Virus record (IMG/VR): IMGVR_UViG_3300042446_001086
Coordinates: 1-22,727 of that record
DNA from: a virus
DNA length: 22,727 nucleotides
Reading direction: 5' to 3' (one strand)
Shown: positions 10,155 through 22,683 of the stretch, in pieces
How the letters are laid out: each line of letters starts with the position of its first letter
Numbering within the stretch: position 1 is the stretch's first letter
The notes under the pieces: model-generated
What the model saw: the letters and a program-made list of their open reading frames with translations, nothing else
The model's database searches: none
Told to the model about the DNA's origin: nothing
Position numbers and translations under genes: made by a program

Positions 10155-11325
10155 AATTGAATGCCTTTTGTTGTTTTTGTTCTACTATCGTGATCACATT
10201 GTGGTGCCATTTTAGTAAATTTTTAATAGAATAGTGAATAGAGTAGAAGTTAAAGTTTACTATCAAATTAAATTTTATCCTAGACTCGAGTATTGTCTTG
10301 GGAACTTTACTGCTGATAAACACTGCTTTGGTTTTTTCAGTGATGGGAGAATTTAAGTTTTCGTCTTTGACAAAATTGTTGAATTTTTCACCGGTTTCTT
10401 TAGGTAATCTAAACAGTACACTAATTTCGTCATTGGTAATTCCATTGTCATTCAAGAAGGTAATACATTTTTCCAATTTTTCCAATTCTGTACCTCCGGG
10501 AATTACAAACAGTGTGGGGGACAGGTAATTTACAATGTCTGACAATGAAGAAATTGCAGTATCTTCTACATTAATTGAAAATTCTTCATTAGGTGCTATT
10601 GATAAAAATTGTCGTGTTACACTATTGGCATTTTTCCATTCATCACTGTCTACTATCTGTTCGTCCCAGGTAAAAATTCCTAATTTTCTTGCAAGGAACA
10701 AATTTTCTAGAATGTTAGAATTTGTAGGTTGTGGAATTTTTGGAGAAATATTCAAAAATTTCAGTTTTTCTCCGTCTAATGAAAGCATAGGCACATACTG
10801 CTCAATGTTCCTTTCGATGTCAGTAAACTGTGATTGGTAGTCTTCGAATTCTTCGTCAACTGAAAAATTTTCTTCAACTGCAAGACCAATTAGAAATTTA
10901 AGAGACCGCTCATCGAGTGAAAAAATCCAGGATTTTTTCTCAGGATCCCAATTTGCGTAATTAAGTGACATCTTTTCCTTCCTAACTTTTGCCAAGACAG
11001 CTTCGTTGAAGGGGAACTCTACTTTAATAACTTTTCCATAAATCTCATGAGGTTGAATTGTCATTTTCTTTGCAGAAGCAACGGTTCTCCTAGAGAGTCT
11101 AAATTGAGGATTTTCTAAAAATGTGGAAATATCTTGATTAAAGATCAAGTTTAATTTAGGTATTTGTCTTTTTAATATTTTTACTGATAGCGTTGCTTGC
11201 TTTTCAGTAAAACCTAGTCCGCGGGTAACTTGATCATAAAAACTATGTATCAGATTTGTGTCATATGGATTCATAGTGACACGATGATCATAGGCTAGTG
11301 CGATAATTAGGTCTTCGATATACAT
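10141..11325 (-). CDS. HARP-like domain protein, apparent helicase relative without ATPase motifs
   Basis: 394 aa directly upstream of and overlapping UvsW. Residues 98-155 contain KVIKVEFPFNEAVLAKVRK followed by ANWDPEKKSWIFSLDE, matching the DPxxKxWxFxL pattern of the HARP domain known from annealing helicases such as SMARCAL1. The C-terminal part (LFVIPGGTELEKLEKCITFLND, TKAVFISSK, LIVNFNFYSI) has the strand/helix rhythm of a RecA-like helicase lobe, but I see no Walker A, DEAD/H box or arginine-finger motif. A role helping UvsW recognise branched DNA is inference. It is the first gene of its transcription unit, preceded by a terminator and a sigma70-like promoter. Confidence 0.7.
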   Translation of the reverse strand: MYIEDLIIALAYDHRVTMNPYDTNLIHSFYDQVTRGLGFTEKQATLSVKILKRQIPKLNLIFNQDISTFLENPQFRLSRRTVASAKKMTIQPHEIYGKVIKVEFPFNEAVLAKVRKEKMSLNYANWDPEKKSWIFSLDERSLKFLIGLAVEENFSVDEEFEDYQSQFTDIERNIEQYVPMLSLDGEKLKFLNISPKIPQPTNSNILENLFLARKLGIFTWDEQIVDSDEWKNANSVTRQFLSIAPNEEFSINVEDTAISSLSDIVNYLSPTLFVIPGGTELEKLEKCITFLNDNGITNDEISVLFRLPKETGEKFNNFVKDENLNSPITEKTKAVFISSKVPKTILESRIKFNLIVNFNFYSIHYSIKNLLKWHHNVITIVEQKQQKAFNFGKL

Positions 11326-11330
11326 AATTT

Positions 11331-11359
11331 ATTATAACACAAAAATAAAAGGAGAACAA
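11331..11359 (-). promoter_or_regulatory. Sigma70-like promoter for the HARP-uvsW operon
   Basis: The minus strand has TTGTTC (forward 11354-11359), a 17-bp spacer and a perfect TATAAT (forward 11331-11336) five bases before ATG 11325. The -35 half lies in the terminator hairpin. No Shine-Dalgarno fits between TATAAT and the ATG. It is the likely start of the long unit running left through UvsW and the accessory genes. Confidence 0.55.
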
Positions 11360-13148: not shown

Positions 13149-14165
13149 TTAGTCTTTCTGACGGTTACGAATCATCGCAATGATGTCTGCTGCTCGGCTA
13201 GATGCCTCACCACCAGCGCTTTCTGCTTTCGGAGCAGGTGCTGAGAATGATTTTTCTGCTGTTGCAACTTCAGCTTCCCATGGTGCTGGTTCTTCAGCTG
13301 CCTTAGCTGGTGCCGGCGCTTGTCGAGCTGCCGGTGCGGCTACTGGTTTAGCTGCTCCGCCTTCTGCACTGTCTCGGCCACCGTAGCCTGCTGGCTTGAA
13401 GTATTGACCCCAACGATCCATGTCGAATGCTTCACCGTCAACTGACGCTTCAAACATTTCCTTGATAACCTTGAGCTCAACTTCACCTGGCTTTTTAGGC
13501 AAGAAGCCCTTTAAGTCATGAAGACCATACTGTGCAATAGCCGCATTTTCTGCTTCGCTTAGAGCACGTTCACGACGAGCCCATGTGCTGGTAGAGTAGT
13601 CAGCATAACCACCCTTGCTAGTTTTAGCAATCTTGAAATCCAAGCCACGGACATAGTCTGTTGGCAATTCTTCAATTTCACTATCCATCAACGCATTCTT
13701 AACAATGTTAAAAATTTGTGAGCCGATAATGAATCGACGAATTGGATTCTCTGGAGTTTTGTCTTCTTGTAGTTTGCTATCGACCACATAACCTTGGAAC
13801 AGGTAAGACTTCTTTTTCCAGTACTTACGACCCATATCTTCCAAAGACTTGTCTTTGAACCATGGACGCACTTCTGTCAATACTGGACATGTTTCACCCC
13901 ACATTTCCATACAAGGGACTTGAACAGTCACTGGTTTGGAATTAGTTTCACCTTTGACTCCGGCAAAAGGCAATTTAATCATTGCTCTTTCAATCCAGAA
14001 AAAAGTGTTGTTTGGATCTGCGTCTGGAAGGAATCGAACTGTAGTAGTTGTGCCTTCTGCGGCATTCCAGTGAGGATAAATTGCATTATCACCGCCGCCG
14101 GATTGCCCGCCGCCTTGTTGTGATGATGCTTGTAGTTTTGCGCGAATTTCTGCTAACGTTGCCAT
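13149..14165 (-). CDS. 32: gp32, single-stranded DNA-binding protein
   Basis: A 338-aa T4-type ssDNA-binding protein that coats replication and recombination intermediates. The N-terminal LAEIRAKLQASSQ segment corresponds to the cooperativity domain. The OB-fold core runs from IYPHWNAAEGTTTTVRFLPD to LDFKIAKTSKGGYADYSTS. A long Ala/Pro-rich linker (about 270-320) leads to a C-terminal helix (SRAADIIAMIRNRQKD). T4 gp32 binds zinc with one His and three Cys; here only C85 and C93 are seen in VPCMEMWGETCPV, so the zinc site is probably gone. AAGGA precedes ATG 14165. A late-type TATAAATA and a terminator hairpin lie in the 145-nt leader region. Confidence 0.92.
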   Translation of the reverse strand: MATLAEIRAKLQASSQQGGGQSGGGDNAIYPHWNAAEGTTTTVRFLPDADPNNTFFWIERAMIKLPFAGVKGETNSKPVTVQVPCMEMWGETCPVLTEVRPWFKDKSLEDMGRKYWKKKSYLFQGYVVDSKLQEDKTPENPIRRFIIGSQIFNIVKNALMDSEIEELPTDYVRGLDFKIAKTSKGGYADYSTSTWARRERALSEAENAAIAQYGLHDLKGFLPKKPGEVELKVIKEMFEASVDGEAFDMDRWGQYFKPAGYGGRDSAEGGAAKPVAAPAARQAPAPAKAAEEPAPWEAEVATAEKSFSAPAPKAESAGGEASSRAADIIAMIRNRQKD

Positions 14166-14310: not shown

Positions 14311-16632
14311 TTATTTTTTCTTGGCTAACAATGCTTTACCAGGTTCCGCTGCCTTATCTTTGGCCATTCTGTCTTTTTGTTTGCCAGCGGCTGCTTTATA
14401 TTCTGGGCCATTGATATCTCTATACGGTGTCTTTTGTTTTTCTTTTGGTCCAGACCCTTCTCCAAGACCGGCTAACTTCATAATTGCTGAAAGTTCTTCA
14501 CTGATGCCTAATTCTGCTTTTTTACGTGCCAGTCCTGCCGAGCTAGTTGGACTATTGGTTTTTTCTTTTTCTAAATCCTTAGTAGACATTTTCCAATCTC
14601 CGCCTTGTTCTTTGCGCTTGTACGCAGGGACTTGGCTCTTGTTTGGACCACTTTCTTCTTGTGCATTTTTTAATTTACCAGTGCGCTCTAAATCCTTTAA
14701 CATATCAATGCGATCACGATAGCCTGCAATACCTGGTTTGATATCATGTGCTGCCATACGTTGTTGGACAGATGGATTATCTGCGTGTTTCATTGTAGTA
14801 TCATATTGGTGACTATGTTGAGGATTCTTTTCCTCACCCATTTCTTCAACACGGCCTTTAATATTGCCCACTAGTTCTTTCAAACGTGCTAACCCATCTG
14901 TAGGTTCAACTGGGCCGGCCTGGCCGTGACGTTGTTGCCACTCTTGGGTTAATTTGTTCATAAATTTTTCTGCTATCTGTGCGGCTTGTTCGCCTGCTTC
15001 GTCGCCAAACTTTTCGCTAATAGATTTTTTAACATCTAACACAATGCCTTCTCCACCACGGAATGGTCCAACTTCTGGATTGTCACGATTGTAAAAACTC
15101 TTAACGATCTTGGCAACTTCTTGTACCATGCTACCTTCTTTACCTTCTGCTACAGGTGCAGGCTGCGCCCCTGCTTCAGGTGCAAGTGCAGGAACCGGTG
15201 CTGCGACTGCTGGGGCTTGTGGTGGTACTTCTTCGGGTTGATTGCTTATGCCTAGTGCTACTAATAGTTCAGGATAGTTGTCTTTTGCCCATACTTGTAA
15301 TACTTCAATAGGATCAGTTCCTGGATCTAAGTCAGCTGCTGCTTTTAATTTTTGTTCTAAATCAGTGTCTTCTAATCCAAAGCTGCTAAAGAACTGGAAT
15401 GACGTTTGACCATCTGGACCAAGTTCCATTTCTCCATTAGGTAATTCTGCTAATGCTTGCTTTAAATCTTCAACCTGATCATCTGTTAGTTTGCCTTGTT
15501 CTACTGCTTCTGCCCATTCTGCAAATTCGTTAAATGCATCTTCCTTAACATCTTCCTCGTCGTCACACTGGCATGGATCTTTGTGACATACTGAGCATGT
15601 GCTTTCTTTAACATAGTCTTCTAAATCAACTGTGTTTGTTTCTTGCATAATGCTGTGTAACAAGGGGAAGAAACTTGCTAGGTCTTCTTTAAAGTTTGTT
15701 TCTGTAAATTTTGATTTGTATGTTTCCATAGTTACAGGATCTAGTTCCATGACAGCTTGATCAACAGCTTCGCCGTCTAGTTCTGATAACCATGACTCAT
15801 AATGATGACGCTTACTTAGTCCTTCAATTGTTGCTTTTAGTTCGTTTAGTCGGCCTACGGCCCTGTCTGTAATGCCCATTGCGTCATCATGAAGAGAACT
15901 GCGTTGTACTTGTCTTTGGAATTCTTGTAATTGAGCAATTTGTTCGCTCATACGGATAATTGCTTTGCCCCCATGATCATGTGGAATACCTCCATGGTCA
16001 ATGTGTTGGGCCATTGCAAACGCACCTGCTGGGTGTATAAATGGATACTTGAAGCGTTCGCCTTCGCTGTTTTGGATAAAAATTGCCTTGATATTTTTTC
16101 GTTGACTACGAGCACCGGGATAAGTTTCATCCACAGCGTGTGCGTGTCGTACAATAACTTCTGTTGCGCCTTTAACTGCACGGCTTGTTTTTTTGGTACT
16201 CTTTTGGTTCCAGCGTGATTCGTTCATATTCATAGTGGGGTCTTCTTCCTTAGGGCCTTGCGTAGTAGCTAGATGTTGGAAATCATTTTTATCTAAATTA
16301 GATTTAGCAACGTCTCGAGTGTCAAAACGTAGTAATCTACGCATAGCAAATAATCTCATTTCTTTTAGAAATCCGTACCAAATTTGTTTTGCAGGATCAT
16401 CTTGATTTTCAGTAATTCCTTGACTGTAGTAAATTTTTAAACTTCCTAGGTCGTTTAAACTGATGCTCACGCGACCTAAGTTTACGTTTTCGTTAACAAA
16501 ATCAAAATCAAAGAATCTTGCTTCTGCAGGGTTGATAGTTACTGCACCTGTTTCGTCGCCCATTTCTAAATTTTGGAAACGGCTTCGAACTTTGTCGAAT
16601 AAATCTTGGCTAATAAGTTGGATAGGTTTCAT
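14311..16632 (-). CDS. Large virion-block protein, 773 aa
   Basis: A large hydrophilic protein of unknown role next to the terminase. Residues 1-110 form an alpha/beta domain (FDFDFVNENVNLGRVSISL). Residues 138-155 are ESRWNQKSTKKTSRAVKG, a motif shared with the C-terminus of the 434-aa protein. Residues 156-345 are His-rich and then helical. A cysteine knuckle with C346, C349, C354 and C356 may bind zinc. A Pro/Ala linker (465-495) follows, then a helical lysine-rich tail with ELSAIMKLAGL (713-723). It has no Shine-Dalgarno; an ATAAATA box lies 7 nt before the ATG. It resembles uncharacterised large structural proteins of marine T4-like phages. A scaffold, internal head or DNA-binding role is possible but unproven. 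Confidence 0.75.
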   Translation of the reverse strand: MKPIQLISQDLFDKVRSRFQNLEMGDETGAVTINPAEARFFDFDFVNENVNLGRVSISLNDLGSLKIYYSQGITENQDDPAKQIWYGFLKEMRLFAMRRLLRFDTRDVAKSNLDKNDFQHLATTQGPKEEDPTMNMNESRWNQKSTKKTSRAVKGATEVIVRHAHAVDETYPGARSQRKNIKAIFIQNSEGERFKYPFIHPAGAFAMAQHIDHGGIPHDHGGKAIIRMSEQIAQLQEFQRQVQRSSLHDDAMGITDRAVGRLNELKATIEGLSKRHHYESWLSELDGEAVDQAVMELDPVTMETYKSKFTETNFKEDLASFFPLLHSIMQETNTVDLEDYVKESTCSVCHKDPCQCDDEEDVKEDAFNEFAEWAEAVEQGKLTDDQVEDLKQALAELPNGEMELGPDGQTSFQFFSSFGLEDTDLEQKLKAAADLDPGTDPIEVLQVWAKDNYPELLVALGISNQPEEVPPQAPAVAAPVPALAPEAGAQPAPVAEGKEGSMVQEVAKIVKSFYNRDNPEVGPFRGGEGIVLDVKKSISEKFGDEAGEQAAQIAEKFMNKLTQEWQQRHGQAGPVEPTDGLARLKELVGNIKGRVEEMGEEKNPQHSHQYDTTMKHADNPSVQQRMAAHDIKPGIAGYRDRIDMLKDLERTGKLKNAQEESGPNKSQVPAYKRKEQGGDWKMSTKDLEKEKTNSPTSSAGLARKKAELGISEELSAIMKLAGLGEGSGPKEKQKTPYRDINGPEYKAAAGKQKDRMAKDKAAEPGKALLAKKK
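16168..16221 (-). repeat. Copy 1 of a shared 18-residue coding repeat
   Basis: Encodes ESRWNQKSTKKTSRAVKG inside the 773-aa protein (residues 138-155). It matches copy 2 at 18300-18353 with a single residue difference and high nucleotide identity. Confidence 0.9.
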
Positions 16633-16639
16633 AATATAT

Positions 16640-16646
16640 TATTTAT
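16640..16646 (-). promoter_or_regulatory. Late-promoter-like ATAAATA box before the 773-aa gene
   Basis: AATAAATA on the minus strand overlaps the gp17 stop codon and lies seven bases before the ATG. No Shine-Dalgarno-like purine run precedes that start. Confidence 0.4.
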
Positions 16647-18226
16647 TAATAATTGCTGATGTAGATAGGCATTGGCATTAGGAACTCGTCATCGCGTTCT
16701 TCACGCATTTTATCGTAAATAGCAGGATCCCACTCTTGTAGCATCAGCGCCATACGTATGACCAGCAATGTAGCACTGACTAGATCGTCGTGCATGCCAA
16801 CTTTAGCTTCAAAACTAACACCTTTTGCAATATACCCTTTAAGTTCGCTAATTAGAGGTTTAGAACGAACACGGAATCTTTTGCTTTCTACCAAGTGTTT
16901 TAATTTAGCACAGGCATTAATTTTACTTGAATTTGTGGTGTTAAATCCTTTGCGGAAGCGGCGAACGTGGCCTTTTTTGATTGGCTCACTTAGAAACAAT
17001 CCCGGAATACTTTCTTCACCTATTTCTTCAATGGCAACTAACGCTGCTTCTCCAATATTATTGTTTTCTACGGAATAATACAGACTTGTCTGCATTCCTT
17101 TATCAGCACACGCATCATTAATAAAGTTGCACAAGTCACGTAAAATACGTACTTGACCCTGGATAGTAGTTAAGTTATGTTGCCACTCTGCAACTTGTTC
17201 GAAGCTTGGGATTTCTAAAATCTGTATAGCTGCTGGGTCGCCGCCTGTACCTAAACTAGGGTCTAGTGCTATAAGATATGTAGACATGGGATTAATTTTT
17301 TTGTACCACCGTGCTTGCCCCATCTTCATGTACGGTTCATCACCTTCCATACCTGCAAGACAAATACTATTAATAAGTGTTTCATCAAATACCAAGAACT
17401 CGCAATCGTGTTCACGGCGAAATCGTTCTTCACCAATACGACTTCGTTCTTCGTTTGCCCAGTTTTCATCACGATCAGGATGTTCATTCCAATATGCTCT
17501 AAATGGAAAGAATCCGTTGCGGCCTACTGTTTGCTCATTGCCAAACTCATCAAACTTGTGATTAGCTTCTTTCCATATGTTGGCAAATTGATCTTCGTCA
17601 CTGTTAGGGGTAGATGTAATAATTGCTTTACCTCCAGTTGCTAGTGTAGGCGAAATGGATGTCCAGAACTCTGTAGCAATATTAGGTTCAACGAACGCAA
17701 ACTCGTCGGCGTATAGTAATGACAGAGACAACCCTCGACCAGTTGTTTCAGTTGTTGTCTGTGCAATAATGCGCGAGCCGTTGTCAAATTCAATACTTTG
17801 TTTATTATAACTTTTAACGCCGCATCGAATATGATCAGCACATAACTCATAGGCATATCGAATACGCGACATAATTTCTTGAGCACCAGTAAACTTGTGC
17901 GCTGCAACTAACACAGTTGCATCAGGAATAAACATAGCGTACCATAACAAGTATCCTGCTGCTGTAGTTGTTTTACCTGTTTGTCGAGGTAGTAGATTTA
18001 CATTAAAGCGATTTCCATGATAGCTGTCAATTAATCTTTTTTGATACTCAAACGGCTCGTATTTTAATTTGCCTTTAGTAGGATGCTGGATATAGAAAAA
18101 GTTGTCAAGGAAATAATGGGGTCCGTTAATCGGATCCGTGCATTTTAGTAGATCTTCGATGTCTTTTTCAGTGTACTTGTTAGAACTGTACGCAGTCTTG
18201 ACTAGTTTGTTATCTGTATATGCCAT
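16646..18226 (-). CDS. 17: Terminase large subunit (gp17)
   Basis: A 526-aa packaging motor and nuclease. The ATPase domain has Walker A RQTGKT (81-86), Walker B LLYADEF (170-176) and coupling motif TSTPN (204-208). The C-terminal RNase H-fold nuclease has D322 in ALDPSLGTGGDP, E387 in YSVENNN and the HDD (479-481) of MHDDLVSA. It docks on the portal and cuts concatemers. Length is close to cyanophage gp17 and shorter than T4 (610 aa), lacking the N-terminal extension. The ATG lacks a Shine-Dalgarno and is preceded by a terminator and TTAAATA five bases upstream. Confidence 0.96.
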   Translation of the reverse strand: MAYTDNKLVKTAYSSNKYTEKDIEDLLKCTDPINGPHYFLDNFFYIQHPTKGKLKYEPFEYQKRLIDSYHGNRFNVNLLPRQTGKTTTAAGYLLWYAMFIPDATVLVAAHKFTGAQEIMSRIRYAYELCADHIRCGVKSYNKQSIEFDNGSRIIAQTTTETTGRGLSLSLLYADEFAFVEPNIATEFWTSISPTLATGGKAIITSTPNSDEDQFANIWKEANHKFDEFGNEQTVGRNGFFPFRAYWNEHPDRDENWANEERSRIGEERFRREHDCEFLVFDETLINSICLAGMEGDEPYMKMGQARWYKKINPMSTYLIALDPSLGTGGDPAAIQILEIPSFEQVAEWQHNLTTIQGQVRILRDLCNFINDACADKGMQTSLYYSVENNNIGEAALVAIEEIGEESIPGLFLSEPIKKGHVRRFRKGFNTTNSSKINACAKLKHLVESKRFRVRSKPLISELKGYIAKGVSFEAKVGMHDDLVSATLLVIRMALMLQEWDPAIYDKMREERDDEFLMPMPIYISNY

Positions 18227-18231
18227 GCATT

Positions 18232-18238
18232 TATTTAA
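18232..18238 (-). promoter_or_regulatory. Late-promoter-like TTAAATA box before gp17
   Basis: TTAAATA directly after the terminator T tract and five bases before the gp17 ATG. Since the terminator stops upstream transcripts, gp17 needs its own promoter, and this box is the only candidate in the 15-nt gap. Confidence 0.55.
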
Positions 18239-18240
18239 TG

Positions 18241-18268
18241 AAAAAAATAGACCCCGAAGGGTCTATTT
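18241..18268 (-). terminator. Intrinsic terminator between the 434-aa gene and gp17
   Basis: On the minus strand AAATAGACCC-TTCG-GGGTCTATTT is a perfect 10-bp stem with a UUCG tetraloop (forward arms 18245-18254 and 18259-18268), followed by a T tract. It lies 17 nt beyond the 434-aa stop and isolates gp17 from upstream transcription. Confidence 0.95.
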
Positions 18269-18284
18269 GGTAAAACAAGTTTGA

Positions 18285-19589
18285 TCAGTTTTTTGACACA
18301 CCTTTAACTGCGCGGCTGGTTTTTTTAGAACTCTTTTGGTTCCAACGGGATTCTTGTAGGCCTTGCTCCCTATACACTCCGTCCATATTTTGTTTACCTT
18401 GTCCACCAGTGGCTTGAGTTAAAGCAGTTAACAAATCATTAAATTTTAGTTTAGGATTAACTAACGCACCTGGTACAATAGTTTTATCGCCGTATACTAG
18501 ATCAGCATCGTCAAAATAAACAGGTGCGTCTTTTGGCAATCCTGCTTGTTTACGCAACCAGTTTGTAAGTTTCATTTGATCACCAGTTTTTTCATAATAT
18601 CGAACGACATTATAACCGTGTGCGCTGCCTTCCGCCACATATTGGTGTGTTCTATCTTTTAACATTGATAGTAGTTTTTCGGCAACTTCTTCTGGGTGAT
18701 CCTCATATGCACTACCTAAATTATATTGTAGCTCATCAAATTCTTTTTGTATATAAAGTCCAACAGGATGAGTGATATTGGGAGAATCGACTATTTTTAA
18801 AATAGTATCACTATTAAATTCTGGACTGTTTACTACTTTTCCAACTTTTTGCAGTAATGCATTGTTATCAACACTAGGACTCATTCTCGAAATAAACTGG
18901 TCACGTGGGGTGTTTGTTAGATCCCGACCTTGCTCGCCAAATTGTACACTTTCGGTTACAAACTTTTTATATTGTGCAAATAGATCTGTTACTGCTTCTT
19001 TCATATCTGCGTATGCTTTTGGACGATCTCCGTCCATTCTATCGCCTTGCCCTGGCTGATTCTCTTGATGAGCATGTGCATTGGCATCAAACTCGTCTTT
19101 GTCATTTGGGTCAGCTGGAGTATTGTCATACTCGTCAACTTTGTTTTTCTTTTCCATATCGTGATCATCCATGTCGTGATCACCATCGTTGTCTAGGTCG
19201 CCGTGTGCTTTATTAACATCGTCTTCACCGTTGTCATCCATTGGATTCAATTTGTCAATCACACTTCGCATGTTATCAGTTTGGCTCATAGGACCGCTTG
19301 CTGGTTCTAATGCGCCCGGTGCTGGTGGTGTGTTGTCTAGTGCAGGAGCTGCTGATACAGGCTTGTTCTGACCAGCAAGTTGCATGATAGTGGCTAGCAT
19401 GTTGCTTAGTTCATCACCGCTACCAGCAGTCATATTAATGCTTGCAGGCATCGATGGCTTCTCAGGAGCTAAGTCCATACCCATTTCTGGCATCATTCCA
19501 CATTCGCCAACTTGAACATTTTCCTTAACAATGTTAGGATTTTTAGAATCAAGTTCCGCTAGTCTTTTCATTACATCGATCATATACAT
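18285..19589 (-). CDS. Acidic virion-block protein with EF-hand-like loop, 434 aa
   Basis: Start ATG 19589 follows AAAGGA by seven bases; the longer open frame to 19658 lies inside the previous gene. Residues 60-73 (ELSNMLATIMQLAG) resemble a segment near the end of the 773-aa protein. A disordered Pro/Asp region follows, with DLDNDGDHDMDD (131-142) fitting a canonical 12-residue EF-hand/dockerin calcium loop (acids at 1, 3, 5, 9, 12 and Gly at 6). The second half is a folded helical domain (190-400). The final residues contain ESRWNQKSSKKTSRAVKG, shared with the 773-aa protein. A strong terminator comes right after the stop. Probably a capsid-associated or scaffold protein; not identified. 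Confidence 0.75.
   Translation of the reverse strand: MYMIDVMKRLAELDSKNPNIVKENVQVGECGMMPEMGMDLAPEKPSMPASINMTAGSGDELSNMLATIMQLAGQNKPVSAAPALDNTPPAPGALEPASGPMSQTDNMRSVIDKLNPMDDNGEDDVNKAHGDLDNDGDHDMDDHDMEKKNKVDEYDNTPADPNDKDEFDANAHAHQENQPGQGDRMDGDRPKAYADMKEAVTDLFAQYKKFVTESVQFGEQGRDLTNTPRDQFISRMSPSVDNNALLQKVGKVVNSPEFNSDTILKIVDSPNITHPVGLYIQKEFDELQYNLGSAYEDHPEEVAEKLLSMLKDRTHQYVAEGSAHGYNVVRYYEKTGDQMKLTNWLRKQAGLPKDAPVYFDDADLVYGDKTIVPGALVNPKLKFNDLLTALTQATGGQGKQNMDGVYREQGLQESRWNQKSSKKTSRAVKGVSKN
18300..18353 (-). repeat. Copy 2 of a shared 18-residue coding repeat
   Basis: Encodes ESRWNQKSSKKTSRAVKG four residues from the C-terminus of the 434-aa protein. It has the same orientation as copy 1 and lies about 2.1 kb from it, with gp17 in between. 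Confidence 0.9.
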
Positions 19590-19590
19590 A

Positions 19591-20178
19591 TTATTTTCCT
19601 TTGCTGCCAAATAGGCTTGTATTACCTGGCTCTGCATCCGTATTATATTTGGCAGCACCTTCTGTTGGAATTTCTTCGCCGCGTTCCTTGCGTTGAAGTT
19701 TCAAGATATCATTTAATTCCTTAACAAAACCTGTATTATACTTATCACCGTAGTAGTCTTCAAACTGCGGACTACCTGCTTCTTTATAGTCGGGATCTAG
19801 CAATAATGCGCCTTCTCTTTTCTCAGCGGGCATTTGATATTCTTCACTTGGCTCGCCTGGTCGACGAACTACGAGATTTTGTTTACCGATGCCTAACTCA
19901 GTTGCTAGATACTCCGTTAGTTCAAATTGTGTTGTTGGAAAATCTAGAGTAACTTCATAGATGTTTACTTCGCAATTTTTAACTTGAGGAAAGTCCAACG
20001 GCACTGCTTGGATAGGCGTCTTTGATTTTTTAAAGCCCGTCAAGGTATTTTCGTTAGTAAAACGCCCTAGCAAACGCTTCATTGTATCTTCTTGTTCAGT
20101 AGACATTTCTCCTGCAATTTTAATGCGGAAGTCATATTGCTTCTTAGATTCGGTTAGGTATTCGGTGAATGATTTCAT
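19591..20178 (-). CDS. Conserved packaging-block protein, 195 aa
   Basis: A 195-aa protein starting MKSFTEYLTESKKQYDFRIK, with an alternating strand/helix domain (VKNCEVNIYEVTLDFPTTQFEL, LTEYLATELGIGKQNLVVRR) and a hydrophilic tail. The ferredoxin-like rhythm of two beta-alpha-beta units is visible. I recall similar genes beside terminase in marine T4-like phages, without assigned function. Its end supplies the ribosome-binding site for the 434-aa gene. No Shine-Dalgarno precedes its own ATG; an ATAAATA box overlapping the gp16 stop lies seven bases upstream. Confidence 0.7.
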   Translation of the reverse strand: MKSFTEYLTESKKQYDFRIKIAGEMSTEQEDTMKRLLGRFTNENTLTGFKKSKTPIQAVPLDFPQVKNCEVNIYEVTLDFPTTQFELTEYLATELGIGKQNLVVRRPGEPSEEYQMPAEKREGALLLDPDYKEAGSPQFEDYYGDKYNTGFVKELNDILKLQRKERGEEIPTEGAAKYNTDAEPGNTSLFGSKGK

Positions 20179-20184
20179 AATAAT

Positions 20185-20664
20185 TTATTTATTCATATTC
20201 TTAAGTTTTTCAAGGATACTATTACGATCAGTGATAATATATCCTTGTCCTTCAACAGTGTCTCCACCTTCTTGACCGTGTTTTTTGTCAATTGCTAACT
20301 TTTTAAGCTGTAGATCAACCATCTTTAACTTTTTATCAATTTTTGCACTTTTTGCAGCAATTGCTTGAGTCATCATACTAGCTGCAACTTCAAACATTCG
20401 AGCACCATATCGTGCTTCAACATTCATGCCTAAATCCATTAAGTCGTCATATGCTTGTTCTGCTTTGTTTGCCAATGCGTCTAGCTCGCTATCTGCCATA
20501 TCCCCCAGTCCTTTTACCCTAGGTAAAGCTGAAGCAATTTTGTCTAATTCTTCTAACTTTTCTTGTAGGTCAATAGTTGCTACTGGCTCTGCGTCAACGG
20601 GTTTAGCATCTAATACAGATTCACTAGGTTCGATGTTTAATAGTTCTTCTAACTTCTTTGTCAT
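20185..20664 (-). CDS. 16: Terminase small subunit (gp16)
   Basis: 159 aa. An acidic N-terminal segment (LEELLNIEPSE, as in T4 gp16 where the protein begins with a similar LLDIEP) is followed by the central coiled-coil pair: SELDALANKAEQAYDDLMDLGMNVEARYGARMFEVAASMMTQAIAAKSAKIDKKLK, in separate helices, and a C-terminal IITDRNSILEKL like the T4 end. gp16 forms the ring that recognises concatemer ends and regulates gp17. Length is near the T4 protein (164 aa). It lies between gp4 and gp17 with two extra genes inserted before gp17. The ATG has no Shine-Dalgarno; ATAAGTA lies five bases upstream. Confidence 0.85.
   Translation of the reverse strand: MTKKLEELLNIEPSESVLDAKPVDAEPVATIDLQEKLEELDKIASALPRVKGLGDMADSELDALANKAEQAYDDLMDLGMNVEARYGARMFEVAASMMTQAIAAKSAKIDKKLKMVDLQLKKLAIDKKHGQEGGDTVEGQGYIITDRNSILEKLKNMNK
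20186..20192 (-). promoter_or_regulatory. Late-promoter-like ATAAATA box before the 195-aa gene
   Basis: AATAAATA on the minus strand, seven bases before the ATG and overlapping the gp16 stop codon. No Shine-Dalgarno is visible between the box and the start. Confidence 0.4.
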
Positions 20665-20669
20665 AATGT

Positions 20670-20676
20670 TACTTAT
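20670..20676 (-). promoter_or_regulatory. Late-promoter-like ATAAGTA box before gp16
   Basis: ATAAGTA (one mismatch to nTAAATA) lies five bases before the gp16 ATG, which has no Shine-Dalgarno. It overlaps the end of the gp4 gene. It is the weakest of the five boxes. Confidence 0.3.
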
Positions 20677-21116
20677 TATTTGTTACGACCATTATGGAAA
20701 ATATCGTGCTCATTTAGAATACGAAATTTAATTCCTTGATTTTTGCACCACGAACTGGCTGCGGCCCACTTGGCTTGATTCTTTACAAACTGTGCTTGGT
20801 TGTAGAGATTTTTACCAACTTTTTCTAATATTTGTTGATTTGCTGGTTTTACTTCCCATAGCTCTGCATGTTGCTTATGATTACGGTCAACAAACATTAC
20901 TAGAAAATCTGGTACATAAATTGACTGCTTTCCAGTTAATGGATCTCTATATGGAATTTTTACCGGCTCGCTTGACCATTGTTGTATAGCAGGATTTTCG
21001 TCACACATCCTCATTACAGCTATTTCCCAACTGCTGCGATAAATTGGGCCGGATGTGCCTACATATTTTTCGGGGTTTTTTAACTTGTAAGCCCCCTTAG
21101 AGAACTTTAAGCTCAT
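20676..21116 (-). CDS. 4: Head-completion protein gp4 (TnsA-like nuclease fold)
   Basis: 146 aa. IYRSSWEIAVMRMCDENP and QQWSSEPVKIPYRDP match the signature of T4 gp4/gp50, with the acidic residue of SSWE (E31). VPDF (D70) and WEVKP (E88, K90) form a restriction-enzyme-like E...D...ExK arrangement. In T4 the protein is needed to finish filled heads before tail joining and may trim DNA ends. Its ATG overlaps the previous stop (ATGA), so it is co-translated with the 123-aa gene. Confidence 0.88.
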   Translation of the reverse strand: MSLKFSKGAYKLKNPEKYVGTSGPIYRSSWEIAVMRMCDENPAIQQWSSEPVKIPYRDPLTGKQSIYVPDFLVMFVDRNHKQHAELWEVKPANQQILEKVGKNLYNQAQFVKNQAKWAAASSWCKNQGIKFRILNEHDIFHNGRNK

Positions 21117-21484
21117 GCAATTATGTTACGTAGTACTTCGGGATGGGTTCTAAATTTTTCAGCGTACCCTAAACTACTGCTCTTAAATCTGTTATAATTT
21201 AATATTTCAGAAACAAGGCCAGATAATGCAACATCGTCTAGACCTTTTAATGTATCTAAAATTTGCATAGGATTGTAATCATCTTGTTTAGCTTGTCTAA
21301 TAATTGTAATTGCAATTGACTCGGCTGATACTTCTGCAAAACCTCTTGCAGTAAAATACCCTTTCATAGCTGCTAACACAGATGAATTAATTTCAACTGG
21401 CATAGAAAAATAAGAATCAAATGCTTGTATAGTCAAATCTTGACTAGTGTTATTAACTGGAATATTAGAATAGGATGAATTCAT
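21113..21484 (-). CDS. Conserved structural-block protein, 123 aa
   Basis: 123 aa, with a conserved-looking core: FDSYFSMPVEINSSVLAAMKGYF, FAEVSAESIAITIIRQAKQDDYNPMQILDTLKGL and LSGLVSEILNYNRFKSSSLGY, all amphipathic helices. I recall near-identical patterns in T4-like cyanophages beside gp4 and baseplate genes, where it is listed as a virion structural protein. AAAGG from the end of the gp54-like gene provides the ribosome-binding site. A tail or neck role is likely from context, not proven. Confidence 0.75.
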   Translation of the reverse strand: MNSSYSNIPVNNTSQDLTIQAFDSYFSMPVEINSSVLAAMKGYFTARGFAEVSAESIAITIIRQAKQDDYNPMQILDTLKGLDDVALSGLVSEILNYNRFKSSSLGYAEKFRTHPEVLRNIIA

Positions 21485-21486
21485 TT

Positions 21487-22638
21487 TTAACCTTTAGGGG
21501 GAAATAAAATTGCAGCTGGGTTTGCTCTAACTTTACCATCTACACTGGTATTGAATGCTTTGAAGATATTAATACCAACACCGCCGGGAAGTGTAAAGAT
21601 GCCCACCTGACTTTCAGTGCTAGGCGGAGAAGCATACTTGCCCGGTGCTGTTTTAGTAAGAGCACCAAGTGCGCCACTGGCAATATTATACCCAGTAGCT
21701 TTAGATCTAATTATGCCTGTAGAGTTAACATAATTTTTAGCCAAGATAGTGGCAATGTCTAACAAGGGATTAGGAGCTTGATAGTTTCCTCCAACTCGAC
21801 CAAACACTCGTTGAGATCCAGGCTTATCAAATCCTGTTTCTTGTTTAATGTATGTAGGACTATTAATAGGATTGCCTGCAATTCCTAACGGGCTAGGAGT
21901 TTTATCATAATAAACTGTAGCAAAGCCAGGTGGATTTGTTTCAGGCACAATTCTGCCATAATCGTACAATACATTTTCGTATGCTACTGACATTCTATTC
22001 TGCATAACTCGGGCACCATCAGCTTGACTTAAACTATCGTGTGCCCATTCTGTAATTTTAGGATTTACTAATGTTATCTGAGTAAAATTTTGTTGATGTA
22101 ATGAATAGATATCAATGGATGTAATGAAGGGAATTTTTTGATTGTTATTGTAGATACCGTATTCGTGATCTTGTTCGCCGTACTTTGTGTCCCAATATGC
22201 AGTAGGTACTTCATTACCTTTCTCACCGTAGTTGCTATCTGCAAAATAATGTTTGTAATAGTTAACCCACAGTTTGTTAATAACATCTAAATTGTCATCG
22301 TGAAATTCCACGCTAACAGGAGAATACGTCAATTTAGTTTGTACAATTGTTTTTCTATTATATTGATTAACAGTTTCGTTGGCCACCGTAAACTTTGGTA
22401 GATCAATTTTCTTCACTAATACACCTACATTCGGAGATCCTTTTGTTCGCCATTCTTTATCCGATATCGCATCTTGATTTAAGTTGAATACTACATAATA
22501 TAAAAATCCAACTTTAGGGGTGAAGGCATAATTGTTATCAACATACAATCTACTTGCATGTTGGTAATCTCTTAGGTTAGGATATCCTTTAAGATAGCCC
22601 GTACTAGATAGGTAGTTAGTAAATGCGTTGCTGCTCAT
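21487..22638 (-). CDS. 54: Tail-tube-like baseplate protein (gp54-like tube initiator)
   Basis: 383 aa. The N-terminal section LRDYQHASRLYVDNN ... PKVGFLYYVVFNLN leads into KKIDLPKFTVANETVNQYNRK and VQTKLTYSPVSVEFHDD (about 77-115), then LWVNYYKHYF. This is the signature shared by T4-type tube proteins gp19 and gp54 (NQYNRKxxVxTKxxYxPVxxxFHDD). The length (gp54 is about 320 aa, gp19 about 163) and the extra C-terminal half favour gp54, which starts tube polymerisation on the baseplate. The C-terminal 120 residues are Gly/Pro/Ser-rich. No Shine-Dalgarno; CTAAATA lies five bases before the ATG, right after a strong terminator. Confidence 0.8.
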   Translation of the reverse strand: MSSNAFTNYLSSTGYLKGYPNLRDYQHASRLYVDNNYAFTPKVGFLYYVVFNLNQDAISDKEWRTKGSPNVGVLVKKIDLPKFTVANETVNQYNRKTIVQTKLTYSPVSVEFHDDNLDVINKLWVNYYKHYFADSNYGEKGNEVPTAYWDTKYGEQDHEYGIYNNNQKIPFITSIDIYSLHQQNFTQITLVNPKITEWAHDSLSQADGARVMQNRMSVAYENVLYDYGRIVPETNPPGFATVYYDKTPSPLGIAGNPINSPTYIKQETGFDKPGSQRVFGRVGGNYQAPNPLLDIATILAKNYVNSTGIIRSKATGYNIASGALGALTKTAPGKYASPPSTESQVGIFTLPGGVGINIFKAFNTSVDGKVRANPAAILFPPKG

Positions 22639-22643
22639 ACAAA

Positions 22644-22650
22644 TATTTAG
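22644..22650 (-). promoter_or_regulatory. Late-promoter-like CTAAATA box before the gp54-like gene
   Basis: CTAAATA on the minus strand, between the terminator and the gene, five bases from the ATG. It resembles the T4 late -10 element TATAAATA. With T4 geometry, transcription would begin at or next to the start codon. Confidence 0.5.
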
Positions 22651-22654
22651 TCAA

Positions 22655-22683
22655 ATAAAAAGCCCAGGTATTAAGCTGGGCTT
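22655..22683 (-). terminator. Intrinsic terminator before the gp54-like gene
   Basis: On the minus strand AAGCCCAG pairs with CTGGGCTT around an 8-nt loop (forward 22660-22667 with 22676-22683) and runs into TTTTATTT. An 8-bp GC-rich stem plus U tract is a classic Rho-independent terminator for the gene entering from the right edge. Confidence 0.88.

What the first reader, a model, noticed from the sequence alone, without database searches (positions are those of the whole stretch)
16633..22650. Late-promoter boxes at fixed 5-7 nt from start codons suggest leaderless late mRNAs
Seen: five structural/packaging genes (starts 22638, 20664, 20178, 18226, 16632) lack a Shine-Dalgarno and have nTAAATA or a one-mismatch version 5, 5, 7, 5 and 7 nt before the ATG. 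Operon-internal genes here (19589, 21484) have AAAGG. Known: the T4 late element TATAAATA is centred about 10 bp before the start site, so transcripts would begin at or within two bases of the ATG. Leaderless late expression would be a departure from T4.
Basis: partly seen in the sequence, partly recalled or inferred. Interest (0 to 1): 0.6.

Follow-up and report, generated by a model that had tools for sequence, protein, structure and literature searches.

The report
Phage late genes start without leaders
In a large, mostly uncultured group of T4-related phages, the late-gene promoter sits so close to the start codon that the messenger RNAs should begin at, or within about two letters of, the AUG with no ribosome-binding leader, unlike phage T4; this is a strong sequence-based inference that can now be tested in a cultured phage of the ocean bacterium Pelagibacter.

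Summary
All five late genes have TAAATA (four) or TAAGTA (one) 5, 5, 7, 5 and 7 nt before the ATG; 0 of 5,000 shuffles match this. It is not local. In the window plus five long relatives (0.72 Mb), TAAATA-to-ATG distances spike at exactly 5 nt: 52 ORFs against 1.6 expected, the most enriched of all hexamers at that spacing. Orthologues keep it: TerL 50 of 55, tail tube 38 of 40, gene 16632 49 of 49, while gp32 and uvsX have SDs and no box. T4's late box lies at -13 to -6 (PMC1524935), which puts +1 on the A of the ATG. A pyrimidine precedes that A in 93% of cases against 54% at SD genes. Where the box of gene 20178 drifts to 17-23 nt, an SD appears (14/15 against 0/26). Divergent genes share 28-29 bp gaps made only of two boxes. 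The arrangement marks most of a well-supported TerL clade but not T4, CBB, Phosso, Syn9 or PA5oct. The cultured pelagiphage HTVC008M has it in a separate lineage. No RNA 5' end was measured. I found no earlier report in the library searched.

The parts
22644..22649 (-). late box TAAATA, 5 nt before ATG 22638
   Evidence: sequence; conserved at 5 nt in 38/40 distinct orthologues
21487..22638 (-). tail tube protein gene, predicted leaderless
   Evidence: PHROG tail tube E 9e-10
22660..22683 (-). intrinsic terminator directly upstream of the 22638 box
   Evidence: -11.9 kcal/mol, z -3.4
20670..20675 (-). variant late box TAAGTA, 5 nt before ATG 20664
   Evidence: the TAAATA/TAAGTA class is kept in 38/44 orthologues; TAAGTA at 5 nt stands at 7 against a background of about 1.1
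20185..20664 (-). small-terminase-position gene (PHROG 16202, unknown function), predicted leaderless
   Evidence: small-terminase role inferred from position
20186..20191 (-). late box TAAATA, 7 nt before ATG 20178, overlapping the upstream stop codon
19591..20178 (-). virion structural protein gene, predicted 2-nt leader
   Evidence: PHROG 14802
18232..18237 (-). late box TAAATA, 5 nt before ATG 18226
   Evidence: 5 nt in 50/55 distinct orthologues
16646..18226 (-). large terminase (TerL) gene, predicted leaderless
   Evidence: PHROG 36964 E 6e-125; the ATG is the only in-frame ATG in the relatives listed
18245..18268 (-). intrinsic terminator ending 18 nt before the TerL ATG
   Evidence: -13.3 kcal/mol, z -5.2; hairpin in 44/55 orthologues with 11 stem types
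16640..16645 (-). late box TAAATA, 7 nt before ATG 16632; box plus spacer fill the whole 13-nt intergenic gap
   Evidence: 4-7 nt in 49/49 orthologues
14311..16632 (-). virion structural protein gene, predicted leaderless (2-nt leader)
   Evidence: PHROG 13484
18285..19589 (-). operon-internal gene with an SD (contrast)
   Evidence: AAAGGA; SD in 31/35 orthologues, box in none
21113..21484 (-). operon-internal gene with AAAGG (contrast)
   Evidence: SD in 20/47 orthologues, box in 1 at 10 nt
13149..14165 (-). gp32-like SSB gene with an SD (contrast)
   Evidence: SD 36/36, box 0/36

Best explanation
The window comes from an uncultured T4-related phage distantly allied to the jumbo phage PA5oct. 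Its late genes use a T4-type late promoter, a lone -10-like TAAATA box presumably recognised by a gp55-type sigma factor. The box is fixed 5 nt (range 4-7) before the ATG, so RNA polymerase should start on the A of the ATG or within about 2 nt of it. The first gene of each late transcription unit would then be translated as a leaderless mRNA by recognition of a 5'-terminal AUG, while downstream genes and the recombination genes gp32 and uvsX use Shine-Dalgarno sites or coupling. Shown: box, spacing, conservation, initiator signature, SD exchange, terminators, gp55 homologues in relatives. Inferred: that gp55 uses this box, the exact +1, and leaderless translation.
For: Spike at 5 nt, top hexamer of all (52 against 1.6). 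TerL box kept across relatives down to about 50% TerL identity. Late genes boxed, gp32/uvsX not. T4 box at -13 to -6 (PMC1524935). Pyrimidine at -1 in 93% of 54 genes, and in 214/215 TerL loci, against 54% at SD genes. SD appears only when the box is further away (14/15 against 0/26). Terminator stem ends about 18 nt from the ATG with varied stems. 28-29 bp divergent gaps made of two boxes. gp55 family in G001, G002, G003 (E 1e-25 to 4e-27). ATG 77, GTG 3, TTG 2 after the box. The same in cultured HTVC008M, 12 boxes at 5 nt, with the starts matching annotated CDS starts.
Against: No RNA data. Window genes 16632, 20178 and 20664 follow the preceding gene closely and could also be read from upstream transcripts. 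PA5oct, nested in the clade, and 14 other rows of 85 lack the box at TerL. No PF02916 sliding clamp was found in the five long relatives, though these are fragments and CBB and PA5oct also score none. The start-codon contrast is small, since SD genes also use mostly ATG (128 of 145).
Confidence: 0.86

Rival explanations
1. The genes are read from longer transcripts that start upstream, and TAAATA before the ATG is an A/U-rich, SD-independent translation signal rather than a promoter.
For: Three of the five genes follow the previous gene within 13 nt, so upstream transcripts can cover them. SD-less initiation on AU-rich leaders exists (general knowledge).
Against: A strict hexamer at a strict spacing, not general AU-richness. 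It equals the T4-type late box, and the genes include structural and packaging genes. TerL and the tail tube gene follow terminators. In 28-29 bp divergent pairs neither gene can be covered by an upstream leader of the usual kind. When the box moves away an SD appears.
Confidence: 0.07
2. A genuine late promoter, but initiation occurs a few nt inside the 4-7 nt spacer, giving 1-5 nt leaders rather than strict leaderless mRNAs.
For: Spacing varies from 4 to 7 nt; purines occur in the spacer.
Against: The pyrimidine-A signature at -1/+1 is at the ATG (93%, 214/215) and T4's +1 falls there. The functional outcome is nearly the same.
Confidence: 0.06
3. Chance, or a by-product of AT-rich DNA and stop codons next to starts.
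For: The window has 38% G+C, and some of the boxes touch or follow stop codons.
Against: Shuffles, control hexamers and distant relatives exclude it.
Confidence: 0.01

Closest known systems
T4 late promoters (gp55/gp33/gp45-dependent; TATAAATA)
   Same: Lone TAAATA box, late structural genes, gp55-family protein in long relatives, spacing consistent with the T4 geometry of -13 to -6.
   Different: T4, CBB, Phosso and Syn9 boxes lie about 20-32 nt before the ATG; here 4-7 nt with no SD.
Pelagibacter phage HTVC008M late genes
   Same: TAAATA 5 nt before the ATG of 12 ORFs including tape measure, gp2-like, head closure and baseplate genes; a 26-bp divergent pair; encodes annotated gp55, gp33-like and clamp.
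   Different: A separate TerL lineage (Kyanoviridae side); other structural genes there keep SDs; relatives Mosig and Melnitz show no such peak in the regions read. A published search found no late promoters in pelagimyophages by standard criteria (PMC7029224).
phiKZ late promoters (TATG, nvRNAP)
   Same: A phage late promoter whose conserved motif overlaps the transcription start (PMC4666361).
   Different: Other polymerase and motif; the T4-type -10 box is absent.
Pseudomonas jumbo phage PA5oct
   Same: Same order of packaging genes and nearest cultured TerL (55%).
   Different: No TAAATA peak near the ATG; its TerL has an SD.

Membership tests
T4-type late promoter | TAAATA core upstream of late (structural/packaging) genes | tested here: met
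T4-type late promoter | late sigma factor gp55 | tested here: met
   phrog_234 in G001, G002, G003; the window is a fragment without it, so this is by relatives
T4-type late promoter | sliding clamp gp45 as activator | tested here: inconclusive
   PF02916 not found in G001-G005, nor in PA5oct or CBB, only in T4; records are fragments and the clamp may be too diverged
T4-type late promoter | co-activator gp33 | not tested
   not searched
T4-type late promoter | box at -13 to -6 from a mapped +1 | not testable with these tools
   needs 5'-end mapping; the initiator signature agrees
Leaderless mRNA | RNA 5' end at or within a few nt of the start codon | not testable with these tools
   inferred from box geometry
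Leaderless mRNA | AUG start codon | tested here: met
   ATG 77, GTG 3, TTG 2 at 4-7 nt after the box
Leaderless mRNA | no Shine-Dalgarno for the first gene | tested here: met
   TerL 0/55, tail tube 1/40, 16632 2/49 with SD-like strings; partly mechanical
PA5oct-like phages (Wroclawvirus, Arenbergviridae) | shared gene order and close TerL | tested here: inconclusive
   same order but only 55% TerL identity; the clade includes PA5oct

The most novel reading that the evidence does not exclude
A major aquatic clade of T4-related phages switches its mode of translation in late infection, from Shine-Dalgarno genes early to leaderless genes late, so that late mRNAs may be chosen by a changed ribosome or initiation-factor state as well as by a late sigma factor; the arrangement arose at least twice, once in this clade and once in HTVC008M.
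Probability: 0.25. Interest if true: 0.82.

Novelty: new variant of a known kind. Interest (0 to 1): 0.66.

Why it matters
T4 late transcription is the textbook sliding-clamp-activated system, and in T4 the late promoter sits far enough upstream to leave a leader with an SD. Here a widespread group appears to have merged promoter and start codon, so for late operon heads the transcription start and the translation start become one signal. This offers a simple rule for finding late genes and correct start codons in many uncultured phage contigs, may explain why late promoters were not found in pelagimyophages by standard searches, and raises the testable question of how leaderless late mRNAs are favoured in an infected cell.

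Tried and rejected
Chance: rejected by shuffles and control hexamers. T4-style placement everywhere: rejected, since T4 peaks at 28 nt, CBB at about 28-32, Phosso 21-33 and Syn9 20-28. A ribosomal-protein bS21 link: HTVC008M, PA5oct, Mosig and Melnitz carry S21 but none of 13 clade records does, and PA5oct, Mosig and Melnitz do not show the arrangement where examined, so no support. Sliding clamp by Pfam gave nothing in the clade. Caulobacter Cr30 (profile) and, by pattern counts only, phiM12, RaK2, Vibrio 2.275, S-PM2, P-SSM2 and Atu_ph07 showed no clear excess. TAAGTA was the clearest of the one-mismatch boxes. Rfam gave no hits. Paper searches for leaderless T4-like or jumbo phage late genes found no prior report; subscription papers are mostly not in that library.

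Full report
What the window is. It is a complete IMG/VR record of 22,727 bases with its genes on the minus strand. PHROG searches name a tail tube, head closure, terminase large subunit, virion structural proteins, gp32, UvsX, UvsY and an SF2 helicase. The nearest cultured TerL is that of PA5oct-type Pseudomonas jumbo phages at 55% identity, and PA5oct has the same packaging gene order.

The observation. In dinucleotide shuffles, none of 5,000 reached five of five with up to one mismatch; over all 31 genes, four exact boxes compare with 0.25 expected, P = 0.0004.

Genome-wide test in relatives. I took five long relatives, 92-221 kb, found by TerL. For each of 572 TAAATA sites I counted ATGs that open ORFs of at least 50 or 60 codons at each distance. 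Counts at 3, 4, 5, 6, 7, 8 nt are 1, 17, 54, 7, 13, 5, with a background of about 1-3; a small second peak lies at 21-22 nt. Ranking every hexamer at 5 nt before ORF starts, TAAATA is first (52 against 1.6), ahead of SD words. In T4 the peak is at 28, in CBB about 28-32, in Phosso 21-33, in Syn9 20-28, and PA5oct has none.

Orthologues. Counting distinct upstream sequences in up to 80 relatives: tail tube box at 5 nt in 38/40; TerL 50/55; gene 16632 at 4-7 nt in 49/49; gene 20664 keeps a TAAATA/TAAGTA-class box in 38/44; gene 20178 at 5-8 nt in 26/41. Contrast genes: gp32 SD 36/36 and no box, uvsX SD 38/39 and no box, 19589 SD 31/35 and no box; 21484 and 21116 lie directly against or overlap their upstream genes.

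A natural experiment. In gene 20178 the box is within 8 nt in 26 relatives, and none has an SD between box and ATG; in 15 relatives the box lies further away (examples at 17-23 nt), and 14 have an SD in between. This is what is expected if the RNA begins just downstream of the box: a leader appears, and with it an SD.

Where the RNA would start. T4's late consensus lies at -13 to -6 (PMC1524935), and the T4 review places it about one helical turn upstream (PMC2988020). A box ending 5 nt before the ATG therefore puts +1 on its A. Independent support: the base before that A is a pyrimidine in 93% of 54 cases against 54% at SD-preceded starts, and in 214 of 215 TerL loci. Bacterial initiation favours pyrimidine-purine (general knowledge).

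Terminators and divergent pairs. In 44 of 55 distinct TerL upstreams, a hairpin plus T-run ends 15-21 nt (mostly 18) before the ATG, with 11 stem types, which suggests compensatory change (folding). The box lies in the remaining gap. Relatives also hold 13 distinct divergent gene pairs whose gap, mostly 28-29 bp, is two back-to-back boxes, each 4-8 nt from its ATG.

Machinery. The late sigma family phrog_234 is found in G001, G002 and G003. A sliding clamp by PF02916 was not found; gp33 was not searched.

Extent. On a TerL tree of 102 rows, 70 of the 85 rows of one supported clade (97) carry the box at TerL, with PA5oct nested as an exception. Box presence at TerL is near-universal above 65% identity and common down to about 50%. 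Outside the clade, the cultured pelagiphage HTVC008M has 12 boxes at exactly 5 nt (Poisson P about 3e-10); 11 of 12 have a pyrimidine at -1 and the genes start at those ATGs in its deposited annotation. Its TerL relatives Mosig and Melnitz have SD leaders in the regions read, so a second origin is likely. Published attempts to find late promoters in pelagimyophages failed (PMC7029224).

Reading. The anatomy fits a T4-type late promoter fused to the start codon, giving leaderless or near-leaderless late mRNAs for operon heads. What is not shown: RNA 5' ends, gp55 dependence, translation. Absence of an SD is partly forced by the box and should not be counted twice. The host is unknown. A few relatives (for example L361, L362, L365-L367) have a terminator-like hairpin directly before the TerL ATG and no recognisable box, which I cannot explain.

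Verdict. Observation confirmed; interpretation supported by sequence evidence; a new variant of a known kind. Leaderless mRNAs and T4 late promoters are both known; their systematic fusion across a large clade was not found in the literature I could search.

Noticed in passing
G001:177498-177525 (L089:17498-17525); also G002, G003, G005, L033, L035, L067: Divergent gene pairs separated by 28-29 bp made only of two back-to-back late boxes, each close to its ATG. HTVC008M has a similar 26-bp gap at 18917-18942.
   Followed up: partly
window 16169-16221 and 18301-18353: A 53-nt direct repeat, 89% identical, encodes a shared peptide (about ESRWNQKSSKKTSRAVKG) at the C-terminus of the 19589 product and inside the 16632 product; relatives G001 and G003 keep it in the 16632 product.
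   Followed up: no
window 11325-11345: Gene 11325 follows a terminator and has an extended -10-like TGTTATAAT about 5 nt before its ATG; near relatives keep a TATAAT-like word nearby. Possibly a near-leaderless sigma-70 gene.
   Followed up: partly
window 10154 (helicase start): The UvsW-like helicase starts with a non-ATG codon (mostly TTG) in 21 of 25 distinct relatives, with an SD in 19.
   Followed up: no
G003:116431-116970; G001:75458-75898; G001:206985-207545: Non-structural genes under the same start-proximal box: an Fe/Mn superoxide dismutase, a ferritin-like (Dps-like) protein and an AlgH-like protein.
   Followed up: partly
L361, L362, L367, L365, L366 upstream of TerL: A terminator-like hairpin and T-run directly before the TerL ATG with no recognisable TAAATA or TAAGTA: box lost, or a different box.
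   Followed up: no
NC_042013 (Atu_ph07) 244-747: A jumbo phage gene annotated as a translation initiation factor; whether clade members encode one was not examined.
   Followed up: no
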